64,000 nt of DNA. Origin: Parvularcula sp. BBD 1991-13 (GTDB lineage: Bacteria > Pseudomonadota > Alphaproteobacteria > Caulobacterales > Parvularculaceae). Below the pieces are notes generated by a model. That model was not told the origin of the DNA and made no database searches. It saw only the letters and a program-made list of their open reading frames with translations. The DNA lies in NCBI GenBank assembly GCA_001657385.1, contig LYSZ01000008.1, positions 62,001 through 126,000 on the forward strand, read 5' to 3'. Both the position numbers and the translations under genes were made by a program. Position 1 is the stretch's first letter. The number at the start of each line of letters is the position of its first letter. Below, piece by piece: positions 18,366 through 22,627 of the stretch.

Positions 18366-20156
18366 TCAGCGCGAACGATTGGCGGCCTGGCGCACGCGGG
18401 CGATATCGCCGAGATCCGCGAACAGGCTTTCCACCGTCGGACGGCGCCCGGCGCCCTTGCCGCGGCAGGAAACGGCGCGCCCGTCGGCGATCGTCGCGCG
18501 CAGGGCGTTGCTCTCTCCCGGCGTCGCGGCGAGAAACGGATCGTCGTCGACGCGCTCGAAACGCACCGCGGCGCTCAGCGCGCCGTCGCGCCGTTCGATC
18601 CGCGCAAGCTGTTTCCAGACGCCGCCCTCTTCGAGCAGGCGCGCCGCGCGCGCCGCCGTCAGCGCCTCCAGTTCGATGGCGGCGAGATCCATGTCGAAAC
18701 CGAACGCCTCATAGGCGAGGATGGCGATCTTGGCGCGCGCGTCCTCGCCGGAAAGATCCGCGGTCGGATCTGGCTCGGCGAAACCCGCGTCCTGGGCCAG
18801 CTTGACGGCATAGTCGAAGGCGGCGCCGTTTTTCATGGTGTCGAGGATGAAATTCACCGTGCCGTTGAGAATGGCGGTCATCTCAACGACGTCGCCAGCC
18901 TTCGCCGCGCGGCGGACGGTCTCCACCATGGGCGCGCCGCCGCCGACCGACGCGGCGTAGGCGAGATGGGCGCCGTTTTCCGCCGCGATGGCGTGCAGTT
19001 CGGCGAGCCCGCCGGCGACGGCCTGCTTGTTGGCGCTGACGATGCTGACGCCCTGCGCCAGGGCGGCGCGGATCAGCGCCGCGCCCGCCGGACCGCCGGG
19101 CAGCGCGTCGATGACGACGTCCGGCCTTTCGCTGAGCAAGGCGTCGATGTCGCTGTGGATCGCCAGCGCGTTAAGCGGGCCCGCGCGCGGCTTGGCGGGA
19201 TCGCGCACCAGAGCGGCGCACAGCGTGTAGTCGTTTTCATCGGCGGCGGTGCGCAGCGCGGCGCCCTCGCCGATGACGCCAAGGCCGGCGACGGCGACCT
19301 TCATCCGGCCGGCGGCGGGGGGCGCGTGAGGTTCGTCTGTATGAAAACCAACCGTGGTGCCGCCGGCGGCGTTCGCCCGCGCGACGTGAATGGCGATGCC
19401 GTGCGCTGCGGCGAAGTCGATGGCCTTGGGCTGCACCAGCTTGCCGGCGACGCCGCGCGCGGTCTCCCAGCTCAGCCGGTCGTAACGGCGCGCCGCCGCG
19501 CCCGCCTGCGCCGGGTCGAGATCGTAAACCCCGTCCACGTCCTTGATGAGGGTCGTCCCCTCCAGTCCCAGCGTATGAGCGAGGAAAACGGCGGTCAGGT
19601 CCGTGCCGCCGCGGCCGAGCAGCACCGGCTCGCCGGTCGGCCCGAGCGCGACGAACCCCGGCACGATAACGACGTCATGGCGATCGATCTCGGCGCGGAG
19701 CGCGGCCGCGTCCGCGCTTTCGGGCCGCGCGTCGTCGACCGGACCGCCGGCGTGAAGCGCGATCTGCCGCGCGCCGGCGATGCGCGCGTCAAGCCCCGCC
19801 CCCTCGCAGGCGATGGCGAGCAGGGCCGCGGAGCGTTCCTCGCCGAGGGCGATCAGGCGCGGCGCGTGGCGGGACGCCCCGTCGGCGCCCAGCCGCGCCG
19901 CCTCCGCATAAAGGGCGTCGGTCTCGCCCGCAAAAGCGGAAACCACGGCGACGACCTTGCCGCCATGACGCGCATGGCGGTAAATCTCGCTGACGGCGAC
20001 AGCGAGATCGTCCGTATGGCGCAGAACGGACGAGCCGAATTTCAGGACGATCAACTCGCCGGCCCCCAACGCGCCCTCGTGCGAAGCCCCGGCGTCGGCG
20101 GCGCCGAACGCGGCCGCCTTCGCCGACGTATATGCGTTTTCTGATTCTAGCCGCAT
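18366..20156 (-). CDS. Bifunctional aspartate kinase/homoserine dehydrogenase without ACT domains
   Basis: A 596-residue fusion. Residues 35-275 are an aspartokinase domain: KFGSSVL near residue 39, GEERSAALLA near residue 103 and GRGGTDLTAVFLAHTLG near residue 180, followed by DVDGVYDLDP. Residues 286-590 are a homoserine dehydrogenase: VAGLGVIGEG near residue 290, NGTVNFILDTM near residue 438 and the catalytic DLSGEDARAKIAILAYEAFG near residue 470. Enterobacterial ThrA and MetL are about 810-820 residues with ACT-type regulatory segments between the two halves; here the kinase runs almost straight into the dehydrogenase. It overlaps metB by ten bases in the metX-metB operon, so it should feed homoserine to methionine synthesis. 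Threonine feedback is not expected; control may instead lie in the SAM riboswitch. Confidence 0.93.
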   Translation of the reverse strand: MRLESENAYTSAKAAAFGAADAGASHEGALGAGELIVLKFGSSVLRHTDDLAVAVSEIYRHARHGGKVVAVVSAFAGETDALYAEAARLGADGASRHAPRLIALGEERSAALLAIACEGAGLDARIAGARQIALHAGGPVDDARPESADAAALRAEIDRHDVVIVPGFVALGPTGEPVLLGRGGTDLTAVFLAHTLGLEGTTLIKDVDGVYDLDPAQAGAAARRYDRLSWETARGVAGKLVQPKAIDFAAAHGIAIHVARANAAGGTTVGFHTDEPHAPPAAGRMKVAVAGLGVIGEGAALRTAADENDYTLCAALVRDPAKPRAGPLNALAIHSDIDALLSERPDVVIDALPGGPAGAALIRAALAQGVSIVSANKQAVAGGLAELHAIAAENGAHLAYAASVGGGAPMVETVRRAAKAGDVVEMTAILNGTVNFILDTMKNGAAFDYAVKLAQDAGFAEPDPTADLSGEDARAKIAILAYEAFGFDMDLAAIELEALTAARAARLLEEGGVWKQLARIERRDGALSAAVRFERVDDDPFLAATPGESNALRATIADGRAVSCRGKGAGRRPTVESLFADLGDIARVRQAANRSR

Positions 20157-21379
20157 GCGCTCGCCGCCTGTTTTTCCAGATAGGCGACCTTAGCAGTATC
20201 GGAGCCGGCAAGGTCAAGAGCGGCGTGAATATCGCGGACAAGATCGTCTGCATGCTCCAGGCCGATGGAAAACCGCACCAGGCGCTCGGAAATGCCGGCG
20301 GTCGCGCGCGCGGCCGGCGTCATGGAAGCGTGGGTCATCGCCGCCGGAACGCAGACAAGGCTTTCGAAGCCGCCGAGGGATTCGGCGATGGTGAAAATTC
20401 GCAGCCTGCGGAGGAGTTCGATGACGTCAACGCTCTCGGCGAACTCAACGCTGAACATGGAGCCGAAGCCGCGCTGCTGTTCGCGGGCGATTTCGTGGCC
20501 GGGATGGCTGGCAAGCCCCGGATAGAACACCCGCGCGACGCGCGCGTCGGCCGCGAGCGCGTCGACCACGGCGCCGGCGGCCGCCTGCTGCGCCTCGATG
20601 CGCGCAAACAGCGTGCGCAGGCCGCGAAGGGTCATGAAGGAGTCGAACGGCGCGCCGGTGACGCCGGTGCAGTTCGCCCACCAGGCCAGCTCCTCGCCGA
20701 GGGCGGCTTCGCGCGCCAGCACCGCGCCGCCGACAACGTCGCTATGGCCGTTGATGAACTTCGTGGTCGAATGAACGACGATGTCGCACCCGAGCGCCAG
20801 CGGGCGTTGCAGCGCCGGCGACAGGAACGTGTTGTCTGCGACCGTAATCGCGCCGCACTCGCGCGCCAGCCGGACGACGTCGCCGATGTCGGTGATGCGC
20901 AGGAGCGGATTGGACGGCGTTTCGATGAGGACGAGTTTCGGCTTTCGGGCGAACGCCGCCGCCAGCGCGGCGGGGTCCGTCTGGTCGACGAACGCGACCT
21001 CGAACTGTCCTTTCTTGGCGCGCGCCGTCAGCAGCCGGTGCGTGCCGCCGTAACAGTCATGCGGGGCGAGGACAAGGTCGCCCGGTCCCGCGAGATTGAA
21101 GGTCAGGTCGAGCGCCGCCATGCCGGAGGCGGTGACGACGCCTCTCGCCGCGCCCTCCAGGGAACACAGCGCCTCTTCGAGCTGACAGCGGGTCGGGTTG
21201 CCCGAGCGCGCATAATCGTATTGCGGCTTCTCCAGGGGATCGCTCCAGGCATAGTTCGCGGACAGATGAAGCGGCGGCGAGACGGCGTTGAAGGCCGGGT
21301 CATGGGCGACGCCCGCCGACGCGGCGAGGGTCTGCGGGCTGAGGCGCGGGCCGGAGGCGTGTTGCAACGTCTTGCTCAT
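20147..21379 (-). CDS. metB: Cystathionine gamma-synthase/O-acylhomoserine sulfhydrylase family enzyme
   Basis: A 410-residue PLP enzyme of the Cys/Met metabolism family. Visible features are YDYARSGNPTRCQLEEALCSLEG near residue 53, SGMAALDLTF, the PLP-binding Lys in HSTTKFINGHSDVVGG near residue 203, and the C-terminal ESLGGFESLVCVPAAMTHASM. It should join an activated homoserine to cysteine (giving cystathionine) or to sulfide (giving homocysteine); sequence alone does not separate the two, so metB versus metZ stays open. The ATG at 21379 overlaps the metX stop by four bases and has AAGGAG nine bases upstream. Confidence 0.93.
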   Translation of the reverse strand: MSKTLQHASGPRLSPQTLAASAGVAHDPAFNAVSPPLHLSANYAWSDPLEKPQYDYARSGNPTRCQLEEALCSLEGAARGVVTASGMAALDLTFNLAGPGDLVLAPHDCYGGTHRLLTARAKKGQFEVAFVDQTDPAALAAAFARKPKLVLIETPSNPLLRITDIGDVVRLARECGAITVADNTFLSPALQRPLALGCDIVVHSTTKFINGHSDVVGGAVLAREAALGEELAWWANCTGVTGAPFDSFMTLRGLRTLFARIEAQQAAAGAVVDALAADARVARVFYPGLASHPGHEIAREQQRGFGSMFSVEFAESVDVIELLRRLRIFTIAESLGGFESLVCVPAAMTHASMTPAARATAGISERLVRFSIGLEHADDLVRDIHAALDLAGSDTAKVAYLEKQAASACG

Positions 21380-22380
21380 TGGTCTTGCTCCTTCAGGAAG
21401 TCTTCGACGATGGGGCCGATGGCGGCTGTTTCTTTCAGAAAAGCGTCGTGGCCGTAGAGGGACTCGATTTCGCAAAACCGCGCCCCCGGCGCCGCGCCGG
21501 CGGCGCGCCGGATGTCGGCGGCCGGCACGAGGCGGTCGCTGCGCACGGCGATGAAGAGGCTTGCGGCGCGGATGCGGGACGGATCGGCGCGGTGGCGGTC
21601 GATCGAAGCGGACAAAGTGAGATAGCGCTCCGCATCCATCGCAAAAGCCTCGCCGCGGGAAACGAGGTACTTGTCCACTTCGAACGGGTCGTCGCGTCCG
21701 GCGCTGGGCGTGTTGTCGAAGCGCTGTTCGAATTCCTCCGGGGTGCGGTAGGTGATCATGGCGAGCTGGCGGGCGAGCGCGACGCCGCCTTGCGCGTCGC
21801 CGTTCGCCCTGGCGAATTCGATGACGCGCCGCTGCACGCCGCGAAAGGCCGTCGCCGCCGGGTGCGTGCGTTCGGCCGCGGAAATGACGCACAGCCGGGC
21901 GAGCCGCTCCGGGAACGCCGCAGCGAAAGCGAGCGCCGCCATGCCGCCATAGGAGGCGCCGACGAAACCGTGCAGCCGCCGGATGTTGAGGACGTCGAGC
22001 GCATGGGCGACGGCCCGCGCCTGGTCGAGAGTCGAAATGGTGCGCGCGGCTTCCTCCGGGTTCGGCAGAAAATCGAAAGCGATGACGCAGAACCGGTCGA
22101 GATCGACGGCGCCGCCTCGACGGACGATCTCGCGCCACCAGCCTTTCGCCCCGTTCGGCCCCGCCGCCTCGTCGGCGACGGCGCGGCCGCTGGAAATGCC
22201 GCCGGAAACGACCACCGCCGGACGGGCCGCATCGCCGTGGATGCGTACGCGCAGTTCAGGTTTGCTTAAGGATTCGCCGCTTTCCAGCGTGAAGGAGGAC
22301 GGCAAGATGATGCCGATATCGGAACAGGTTTGCGCCGCAGGCGGGTCCTGCGCTGGCGTTTTCCGGAAGTAAGCGTTCAT
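21376..22380 (-). CDS. metX: MetX-type homoserine O-acyltransferase (divergent)
   Basis: A 334-residue alpha/beta-hydrolase-fold protein. The nucleophile elbow GASYGGMAAL is near residue 143, the Asp in VRSDRLVPAAD near residue 282 and the His in LYGHDAFLKE near residue 310, completing a Ser-Asp-His triad. The segment LPSSFTLESGESL near residue 29 matches the MetX N-terminus, and GWWREIVRRGGAVDLDRF resembles the region after the first strands. It is shorter and more divergent than typical MetX. It should activate homoserine with acetyl- or succinyl-CoA. It is first in the operon behind the SAM riboswitch. A hairpin 5 bases upstream of its ATG may hide the ribosome site. Confidence 0.88.
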   Translation of the reverse strand: MNAYFRKTPAQDPPAAQTCSDIGIILPSSFTLESGESLSKPELRVRIHGDAARPAVVVSGGISSGRAVADEAAGPNGAKGWWREIVRRGGAVDLDRFCVIAFDFLPNPEEAARTISTLDQARAVAHALDVLNIRRLHGFVGASYGGMAALAFAAAFPERLARLCVISAAERTHPAATAFRGVQRRVIEFARANGDAQGGVALARQLAMITYRTPEEFEQRFDNTPSAGRDDPFEVDKYLVSRGEAFAMDAERYLTLSASIDRHRADPSRIRAASLFIAVRSDRLVPAADIRRAAGAAPGARFCEIESLYGHDAFLKETAAIGPIVEDFLKEQDQ

Positions 22381-22385
22381 GTCTC

Positions 22386-22434
22386 GGTCTCTGCTCCATG
22401 CGTCGTTTCCTCAAACAAGCAATTCGCAGAGACC
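22386..22434 (-). promoter_or_regulatory. Candidate expression-platform hairpin of the met riboswitch
   Basis: GGTCTCTGC (minus strand, 22434-22426) pairs perfectly with GCAGAGACC (22394-22386) around a 31-base loop. The 3' arm lies five bases before the metX ATG, and the only ribosome-site-like GGAG is at its edge. This fits control of translation initiation. No U-run follows, so a transcription terminator is less likely. Confidence 0.55.
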
Positions 22435-22465
22435 TCATCGGACGCGGCTGAAGACAGATGCTCGT

Positions 22466-22593
22466 CCGACCCATCTCTCGAACCGGCGGAACCGATCCGT
22501 AGGAATTGGCACCTTTCCCAAAAGTCGGTCAGACTTTTCGGCGGTTGCCCCAGCGTCGACGGGCCTATCCCTCGGCTGGTCTTGATGAGTTGG
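22466..22593 (-). ncRNA. SAM-I (S-box) riboswitch aptamer upstream of metX
   Basis: Read on the minus strand from 22593, all the hallmark S-box segments occur in order: CTCATCAAGA, GAGGGA, GGCCC, GGGGCAACC, and AAGGTGCCAATTCC. Helices can be drawn: P1 CCAACTCATC (22593-22584) with GATGGGTCGG (22475-22466), nine of ten pairs including G-U; P2 CCAGC with GCTGG; P3 AAAAGTC with GACTTTT around a five-base loop. In this family S-adenosylmethionine binding switches off methionine genes. It precedes metX-metB-AK/HSD by about 85 bases. The match of conserved joints plus pairing makes this one of the firmest RNA calls in the window. Confidence 0.92.
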
Positions 22594-22598
22594 ACAGC

Positions 22599-22627
22599 TG
22601 GATAATCGCCGCGCCGCGAGACGTCAA
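22599..22627 (-). promoter_or_regulatory. Predicted promoter of the met operon
   Basis: On the minus strand TTGACG (22627-22622) is followed after 17 bases by TATCCA (22604-22599). The expected start, about 22592, coincides with the first bases of riboswitch helix P1, which independently supports both calls. The rest of the spacer to the next gene (22628-22809) shows nothing else I can name. Confidence 0.7.

What the first reader, a model, noticed from the sequence alone, without database searches (positions are those of the whole stretch)
22380..22627. SAM-I (S-box) riboswitch and promoter controlling metX-metB-AK/HSD in a putative alphaproteobacterium
Seen: every conserved S-box segment in order on the minus strand, pairing helices P1, P2 and P3, a promoter whose predicted start falls on the first base of P1, and a perfect 9-bp hairpin five bases before the metX ATG. 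Known: alphaproteobacteria mostly use the SAM-II class for methionine genes; S-box RNAs are typical of Firmicutes and occur in a few proteobacteria. Inference: SAM shuts off the whole methionine branch, possibly by translation rather than termination, and the operon with its RNA may have been acquired as a unit.
Basis: partly seen in the sequence, partly recalled or inferred. Interest (0 to 1): 0.72.

Follow-up and report, generated by a model that had tools for sequence, protein, structure and literature searches.

The report
SAM riboswitch controlling methionine genes
A bacterium related to Marinicaulis carries a well-known RNA sensor for S-adenosylmethionine in front of its methionine genes; the sensor itself is ordinary, but it appears to sit in front of the cell's only homoserine dehydrogenase gene, so it may also control threonine supply.

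Summary
Rfam's SAM-I model (RF00162) matches window 22591-22468 (minus strand) over its full length at 74.8 bits (cut-off 44.4). A TTGAC -35 element precedes 79 of 79 leaders collected in the order, and the 9-bp hairpin before metX is present. It is the genome's only SAM-I hit. It is no isolated import: SAM-I occurs in 74 of 299 genomes of the order, followed by metX in 75 of 79 leaders. A metX-metB-hom operon under translational SAM-I control is published for Xanthomonas (PMC7270179). So: a new member of a known kind.
Additions: (1) a conserved candidate toggle. GGUCUCU...GAAUU can pair with the aptamer's 3' part (ON), or GGUCUCU with the Shine-Dalgarno region (OFF); one leader carries a compensatory change, otherwise covariation is thin. 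(2) The operon holds the genome's only detected homoserine dehydrogenase, without a detected ACT domain, so SAM may also gate threonine. (3) In related genomes SAM-II stands before the same kind of metX. No ligand binding or regulation was tested.

The parts
22622..22627 (-). -35 element TTGACG
   Evidence: TTGAC within 45 nt upstream of the aptamer in 79 of 79 leaders of the order
22599..22604 (-). putative weak -10 element TATCCA, 17-nt spacer
   Evidence: position read; not found by the generic scan
22468..22591 (-). SAM-I (S-box) aptamer, P1-P4
   Evidence: RF00162, 74.8 bits, full length
22503..22507 (-). AAUUC of the aptamer (J3/4-P4 side): 5' strand of candidate anti-aptamer helix H1
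   Evidence: pairs with 22425-22421 in 5 of 5 positions; compensatory change in L014
22473..22478 (-). AGAGAU at the 3' side of P1: 5' strand of candidate anti-P1 helix H2
   Evidence: pairs with 22433-22428 in 6 of 6 positions
22437..22470 (-). P5 hairpin, GTCGGACG (22470-22463) with CGTCCGAT (22444-22437)
   Evidence: two pairs with changes on both sides in 27 leaders
22426..22434 (-). anti-Shine-Dalgarno GGUCUCUGC, the toggle element
   Evidence: GGTCTC invariant in the 27 aligned leaders
22421..22425 (-). GAAUU, 3' strand of candidate anti-aptamer helix H1
22386..22394 (-). Shine-Dalgarno side of the 9-bp hairpin, GCAGAGACC
21376..22380 (-). metX, homoserine O-succinyltransferase MetX
   Evidence: NF006449 (PRK08775) 340.7 bits, cut-off 296
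20147..21379 (-). metB, cystathionine gamma-synthase
   Evidence: TIGR02080 534.3 bits, cut-off 504.55 (queried as 20147-21385 with two extra upstream codons); start
18366..20156 (-). aspartokinase-homoserine dehydrogenase fusion, 596 aa, no ACT domain found
   Evidence: Pfam AA_kinase, NAD_binding_3, Homoserine_dh; only PF00742 hit in the genome

Best explanation
This is a SAM-I riboswitch with a translational expression platform, driving metX-metB-AK/HSD in a bacterium of the same GTDB genus as Marinicaulis flavus (Parvularculaceae). Transcription starts at P1 (inferred). During transcription the 3' part of the aptamer can form P1/P4 with bound SAM, or pair with GGUCUCU...GAAUU. Without SAM the second pairing holds GGUCUCU away from the Shine-Dalgarno region and metX is translated (inferred). 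With SAM, P1 holds, GGUCUCUGC pairs with GCAGAGACC and the ribosome is blocked (inferred). Overlapping starts at metX/metB and metB/AK-HSD would pass the block downstream by translational coupling (inferred). Shown by sequence or calculation: the aptamer match, the two mutually exclusive pairings, their conservation, the gene layout, the single homoserine dehydrogenase hit. Not shown: SAM binding and any change in expression.
For: RF00162 at 74.8 bits; metX follows in 75 of 79 leaders of the order. No terminator-like site. In the 27 aligned family leaders GGTCTC is invariant. The 8-nt anti-SD pairs 8 of 8 with the pre-start region in 10 of 27 leaders against 3.4% of shuffled tails (mean 7.1 against 6.3 pairs). 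H2 pairs 6 of 6 in 24 of 27 and H1 5 of 5 in 22 of 27. L014 changes the aptamer U to G and the platform A to C, keeping that H1 pair. Own aptamer-platform complementarity against swapped partners: reached by 1 of 2000 permutations in f5, 9 of 2000 in f1, 0 of 2000 over the three families together; f3 has no power (2000 of 2000) (not corrected for relatedness). In the transcript cut before the SD the two enforced folds lie within 2 kcal/mol of each other in 26 of 27 leaders (window -69.3 ON, -67.3 P1). A published precedent with the same gene order, the Xanthomonas met operon, is SAM-repressed mainly at translation (PMC7270179).
Against: At equilibrium the complete window leader favours the OFF fold by about 11 kcal/mol even without SAM (-93.3 against -82.3 with H2 forced, -78.7 with H1 and H2 forced), so the switch would have to be kinetic or need another factor. 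In the cut transcript the ON fold is the overall minimum in 8 of 27 leaders, P1 in one (L026, by 4.4 kcal/mol over ON), and in 18 neither enforced fold is (the window's minimum is -70.0). H1 and H2 are nearly invariant, so covariation is thin: on the MAFFT alignment neither has a pair with changes on both sides, and the structure's two such pairs, both in P5, are reached by 85 of 500 shuffles (the covariation score by 0 of 500). The SD side varies mostly by G-U-compatible single changes, and 6 of 27 leaders (L004, L008, L011, L024, L163, L171) pair only 5-6 of 8 there. Rho-dependent termination is not excluded.
Confidence: 0.85

Rival explanations
1. The SAM-I aptamer acts mainly on transcription, through Rho-dependent termination exposed when SAM is bound, and the hairpin before metX is secondary.
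For: The published Xanthomonas riboswitch lowers its transcriptional fusion by about 24% with SAM, and the authors do not exclude Rho (PMC7270179).
Against: The SD-sequestering pairing is more frequent than chance in relatives; the same paper reports about 98% repression of the translational fusion. Rho itself was not tested here.
Confidence: 0.1
2. As in Xanthomonas, uncharged initiator tRNA also binds the anti-SD region and opens the switch, which would explain why the calculated OFF fold dominates without SAM. This could hold together with the best explanation.
For: Same gene order and no terminator; the same oddity (SD sequestered without SAM) led to the tRNA finding there (PMC7270179).
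Against: The platform sequence differs: leaders of the unnamed family f197 have an ATGGC element and a CGCCATG start, the window has GGUCUCU instead (by inspection). No tRNA test was made.
Confidence: 0.1
3. The element is a decayed or non-functional SAM-I relic.
For: Its score (74.8) is the lowest of the same-genus hits (75.6 to 89.4 in the others).
Against: Full-length match well above cut-off; promoter, platform and following gene conserved.
Confidence: 0.03

Closest known systems
SAM-I_Xcc of Xanthomonas campestris pv. campestris (PMC7270179; operon described in PMC6230763)
   Same: SAM-I aptamer in front of a homoserine O-succinyltransferase-metB-hom operon; no intrinsic terminator; Shine-Dalgarno sequestration.
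   Different: Different platform sequence, judged by inspection of unnamed f197 leaders that carry the published anti-AUG letters (that f197 is the Xanthomonas family is an assumption). The four SAM-I metX genomes tested outside the class have two homoserine dehydrogenase hits each, the window genome one. tRNA binding not tested here.
SAM-I riboswitches of Firmicutes (B. subtilis yitJ type; details recalled)
   Same: Aptamer class and a platform that competes with P1.
   Different: Those characterised use intrinsic terminators (stated in PMC7270179); none was found here.
SAM-II (SAM_alpha, RF00521)
   Same: Same ligand (recalled), and in relatives the same position in front of metX.
   Different: Another Rfam family; no RF00521 hit in the window genome (where the control genomes were silent too; but the same family rang in 95 of 298 genomes of the order, again not in the window's).

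Membership tests
SAM-I riboswitch (RF00162) | covariance-model score over the gathering cut-off, full length | tested here: met
   74.8 against 44.4 bits, model 1-108 of 108
SAM-I riboswitch (RF00162) | located upstream of a methionine/SAM gene | tested here: met
   metX ATG is the 88th base after the aptamer end
SAM-I riboswitch (RF00162) | expression platform whose alternative pairing excludes P1 | tested here: inconclusive
   AGAGAU/GUCUCU competes with P1 by sequence, but the calculated full-length minimum keeps P1
SAM-I riboswitch (RF00162) | binds SAM and discriminates against SAH | not testable with these tools
   needs in-line probing
SAM-I_Xcc type | stands before a metX(A)-metB-hom gene set | tested here: met
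   co-transcription itself not tested
SAM-I_Xcc type | no intrinsic terminator, SD in a hairpin | tested here: met
   by sequence and calculation
SAM-I_Xcc type | anti-AUG element AUGGC | tested here: not met
   AUGGC not seen between aptamer and metX ATG; present in f197 leaders
SAM-I_Xcc type | binding of uncharged initiator tRNA | not testable with these tools
   biochemical property
SAM-II (RF00521) | covariance-model match in the genome | tested here: not met
   0 of 1, and again no hit

The most novel reading that the evidence does not exclude
In this genus a SAM riboswitch controls the cell's only homoserine dehydrogenase, an enzyme without an ACT domain, so SAM rather than threonine would set the supply of homoserine for methionine, threonine and isoleucine together.
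Probability: 0.35. Interest if true: 0.6.

Novelty: new member of a known kind. Interest (0 to 1): 0.4.

Why it matters
The riboswitch is ordinary, but its surroundings ask a clean question: how does a cell make threonine when SAM is high if its single homoserine dehydrogenase is under SAM control and lacks an ACT domain? The set of relatives is also useful for studying how one riboswitch class comes to stand in the place of another in front of the same kind of gene.

Tried and rejected
An upstream reading frame starting at ATG 22399 (with GAGGA before it) inside the hairpin loop: not seen at that place in the other 26 aligned leaders (by inspection), so treated as chance.

A motif search for aptamers missed most SAM-I copies in Brevundimonas and Asticcacaulis; the Rfam search replaced it for 65 loci, so the 'apt ' entries are not evidence of absence.

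Horizontal transfer of the unit from gammaproteobacteria: the two trees are unrooted quick searches and disagree on whether the order's MetX stands apart from the presumed gammaproteobacterial rows; direction cannot be told. A single origin of SAM-II in front of metX is not rejected (p-AU 0.0616), although starred branches ask for two changes. The first tree used 81 of 145 distinct MetX rows (thinned to below 80% identity); the second left out L139 (long branch) and 14 more of these and added 8, giving 74.

Rows dropped before counts: platform counts use 27 of 30 Parvularculaceae leaders with metX (L030 and L031, whose platform differs, and L190 left out). The permutation used these 27, 19 of 20 f3 leaders (L176 out) and 20 of 24 f5 leaders (L126, L127, L175, L184 out, start unclear). 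Metx starts were picked by me from the in-frame candidates; L163's is uncertain. Of the phylum hits, only 26 new loci plus 4 chosen later were fetched.

Literature (open-licence PMC set only): Parvularcula with riboswitch, 0 papers; S-box, riboswitch and Brevundimonas, 1, by its title unrelated; SAM-I, riboswitch and Caulobacterales, 4, of which passages of two were read (PMC4239095, PMC3766115) and two seen as listing only; SAM-I riboswitch, Alphaproteobacteria, methionine and metX, 1, listing only; homoserine dehydrogenase with riboswitch terms, 11, listing only apart from PMC4239095. In what was seen, this operon with SAM-I in the order was not described; that is no proof of novelty.

Full report
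Observation. The Rfam SAM-I model matches window 22591-22468 on the minus strand over its full length, 74.8 bits against a cut-off of 44.4. It is the only SAM-I hit in the 4.24-Mb, 36-contig genome; RF00521 (SAM-II) gives none. The leader carries a TTGACG -35 element; TTGAC occurs within 45 nt upstream of the aptamer in 79 of 79 leaders collected from the order, against 4.3% of shuffles. The hairpin before metX is a perfect 9-bp stem.

Genes. metX passes NCBIfam PRK08775 (homoserine O-succinyltransferase MetX, 340.7 bits, cut-off 296) and metB passes TIGR02080 (534.3, cut-off 504.55). The third gene is a 596-aa fusion of an amino-acid-kinase domain and homoserine dehydrogenase without a detected ACT domain. 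metX and metB overlap by 4 nt, metB and AK/HSD by 10 nt. metB has a good Shine-Dalgarno of its own (AAGGAG), so control of the downstream genes through metX is an inference; co-transcription was not tested.

Organism. The nearest MetX relatives found are Parvularculaceae. The same-genus genome G022 holds a 497,166-base contig, the length of Marinicaulis flavus NZ_PJCH01000017.1, and their MetX rows are identical, so the window most likely belongs to the GTDB genus of that species.

Distribution (own genome included in each count). SAM-I was found in 38 of 100 relatives, 8 of 385 genomes of the class (7 over the cut-off), 74 of 299 of the order and 83 of 398 of the phylum draw, many of them of one family with another context. 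The six class hits outside the order have no metX, metB or AK/HSD match in the fetched stretch (0 of 6). In the 79 leaders of the order (all hits) metX follows in 75. Of the other four, L002 lies at a contig end, L173 and L183 stand before metB, and the gene after L176 was not identified. Outside the class, 8 of 8 leaders of families f197 and f218 examined have metX, but four of them were chosen because they had it.

Named metX loci. One search kept the best 80 of 431 metX-encoding stretches, itself a capped list. Fifteen near loci were SAM-I-positive by motif. Of the other 65, 55 have RF00162 over its cut-off and 5 have RF00521 over its cut-off. Of the last 5, four have RF00521 below its cut-off (28.3-35.3 bits) and one (L098) RF00162 at 25 bits, E 0.22, with a long insert.

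Switch anatomy. 27 of 30 family leaders with metX were aligned. They share GATGAGTC-GGACGA...TCGTCCGAT..GGTCTCT..GAATT...AGAGRC...ATG with variations. GGTCTC is invariant. It can pair with AGAGAU at the 3' side of P1 (6 of 6 in 24 of 27) or, as an 8-mer, with the pre-start region (8 of 8 in 10 of 27, 7 in 11, 5-6 in 6; 8 of 8 in 3.4% of shuffled tails). GAAUU can pair with AAUUC in the aptamer (5 of 5 in 22 of 27); L014 keeps one of these pairs through a double change (aptamer AAGUC, platform GACU). On the MAFFT alignment 94.8% of cells of H1, H2 and P5 form standard pairs; slides give 29-52%; shuffles give 94.0%. Two pairs, both in P5, have changes on both sides, which 85 of 500 shuffles reach; the covariation score 0.040 is reached by none of 500. 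Since related sequences can exceed shuffles without structure, this is supportive only.

Energies. In the transcript cut before the SD the ON and P1 folds lie within 2 kcal/mol in 26 of 27 leaders; ON is the overall minimum in 8, P1 in 1, neither in 18. Once the SD is present, OFF is better than ON in 20 of 27 leaders, in the window by about 11 kcal/mol; in L004, L008, L011, L013, L024, L163 and L171 ON is better, but there the enforced OFF pairing may be misplaced. A kinetic switch, or an extra factor as reported for Xanthomonas, would be needed. These are calculations without ligand, pseudoknots or kinetics.

Homoserine dehydrogenase. PF00742 occurs once in the window genome (estimated 97.95% complete), in this operon. 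One search tested 39 chosen genomes; 36 have a hit (none in G017, G032, G063). Among the 14 SAM-I genomes of the genus tested, 13 have exactly one hit (G015 has two); in 13 of 14 a hit lies about 2.7-3.5 kb downstream of the riboswitch on the same strand, and in G007 the only hit is on another contig. G003 is a single-contig genome with its only hit in the operon. In genus g6 of the family 4 of 4 tested SAM-I genomes have one hit, 1.5-3 kb downstream. In G061, G085 and G097 (f3) the single hit is also downstream on the same strand. Elsewhere it differs: in G604, G083 and G598 the gene lies divergently, in G071 and G582 on another contig, in G063 none was found. The four genomes outside the class have two hits each, one of them downstream of the riboswitch in three (G867, G754, G947; not G1025).

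ACT domain. Besides the window's, 0 of 5 dehydrogenases tested of this lineage have one (L032, L211, L213, L037, and L205 of G020, which has lost SAM-I), while 3 of 3 from relatives without SAM-I (G033, G040, G028) do. This is a small, chosen sample. Threonine synthase (TIGR00260) is present in 4 of 4 genomes tested. The window genome also has a complete lysC-type aspartokinase elsewhere. G020 (100% complete by estimate, 30 contigs), without SAM-I, has no MetX of this type and, beside the dehydrogenase, only a 39-residue metB remnant; dehydrogenase and proB are kept. That fits a need for threonine. An intact metB elsewhere in G020 was not looked for.

Two riboswitch classes. SAM-II stands before metX in other Parvularculaceae and in Hyphomonadaceae-type loci; in G017, which is of the same genus, the match is below Rfam's cut-off (30.5 against 36 bits). 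Its MetX, however, groups with those of other SAM-II Parvularculaceae and not inside the genus's SAM-I group, so a swap of the whole unit is as likely as a swap of the RNA alone. SAM-I in 74 of 299 and SAM-II in 95 of 298 genomes of the order (62 over the cut-off) overlap only in G018, a 76% complete genome; genomes are related, so the hypergeometric value overstates the strength. That no species was found with both classes, and that SAM-I has examples in alphaproteobacteria, was reported in 2007 (PMC2258182, passages seen).

Literature seen. PMC7270179: abstract, introduction, results and part of the discussion (parts 1-4 of 7). PMC6230763: outline and one results section. PMC4239095, PMC3766115 and PMC2258182: passages. 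Leyn et al. (PMC4239095) report scanning three SAM/SAH riboswitch families, not SAM-I, so its silence on SAM-I is not evidence of absence.

Verdict. A sound SAM-I riboswitch with, most likely, a translational platform: a new member of a known kind. The interesting part is what it controls.

Noticed in passing
window 18366-20156; G000:C20:80411-80932: The only homoserine dehydrogenase domain found in the genome lies in the SAM-I operon and has no detected ACT domain.
   Followed up: partly
over cut-off: L056, L084, L089, L090, L095, L206, L210, L232, L233; below: L051, L074, L092, L105, L227, L229, L231, L234: SAM-II stands in front of metX where other relatives have SAM-I.
   Followed up: partly
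L074:3622-3954, L084:3637-3969, L056:676-1008, L089:3630-3956, L095:3648-3980: A reading frame of 108-110 aa of unknown family lies between SAM-II and metX in these five loci; no Pfam family over its cut-off for the two scanned, L084 and L089.
   Followed up: partly
L130-L155 except L132, L139, L150, L152: In unnamed families of the phylum (f189, f208) RF00162 stands before a threonine-synthase-like gene in 21 of these 22 loci (L142 ends too soon to tell), with terminator-like sequence after the aptamer in the leaders read.
   Followed up: partly
L030/L173 (G039) and L031/L183 (G047): metX and metB are apart in these two genomes and a second SAM-I copy stands before metB.
   Followed up: partly
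L205:5400-6515 (G020): A same-genus genome without SAM-I has no MetX of this type and only a metB remnant beside the kept homoserine dehydrogenase and proB.
   Followed up: partly
L098:2100-2308; L186-L189: SAM-I copies with extra sequence between GGCCC and GGGGCAACC; in L098 the insert drops the Rfam score to 25 bits.
   Followed up: no
window 22399-22397: An ATG with a good Shine-Dalgarno (GAGGA) inside the hairpin loop, out of frame with metX and not seen in the other aligned leaders.
   Followed up: yes
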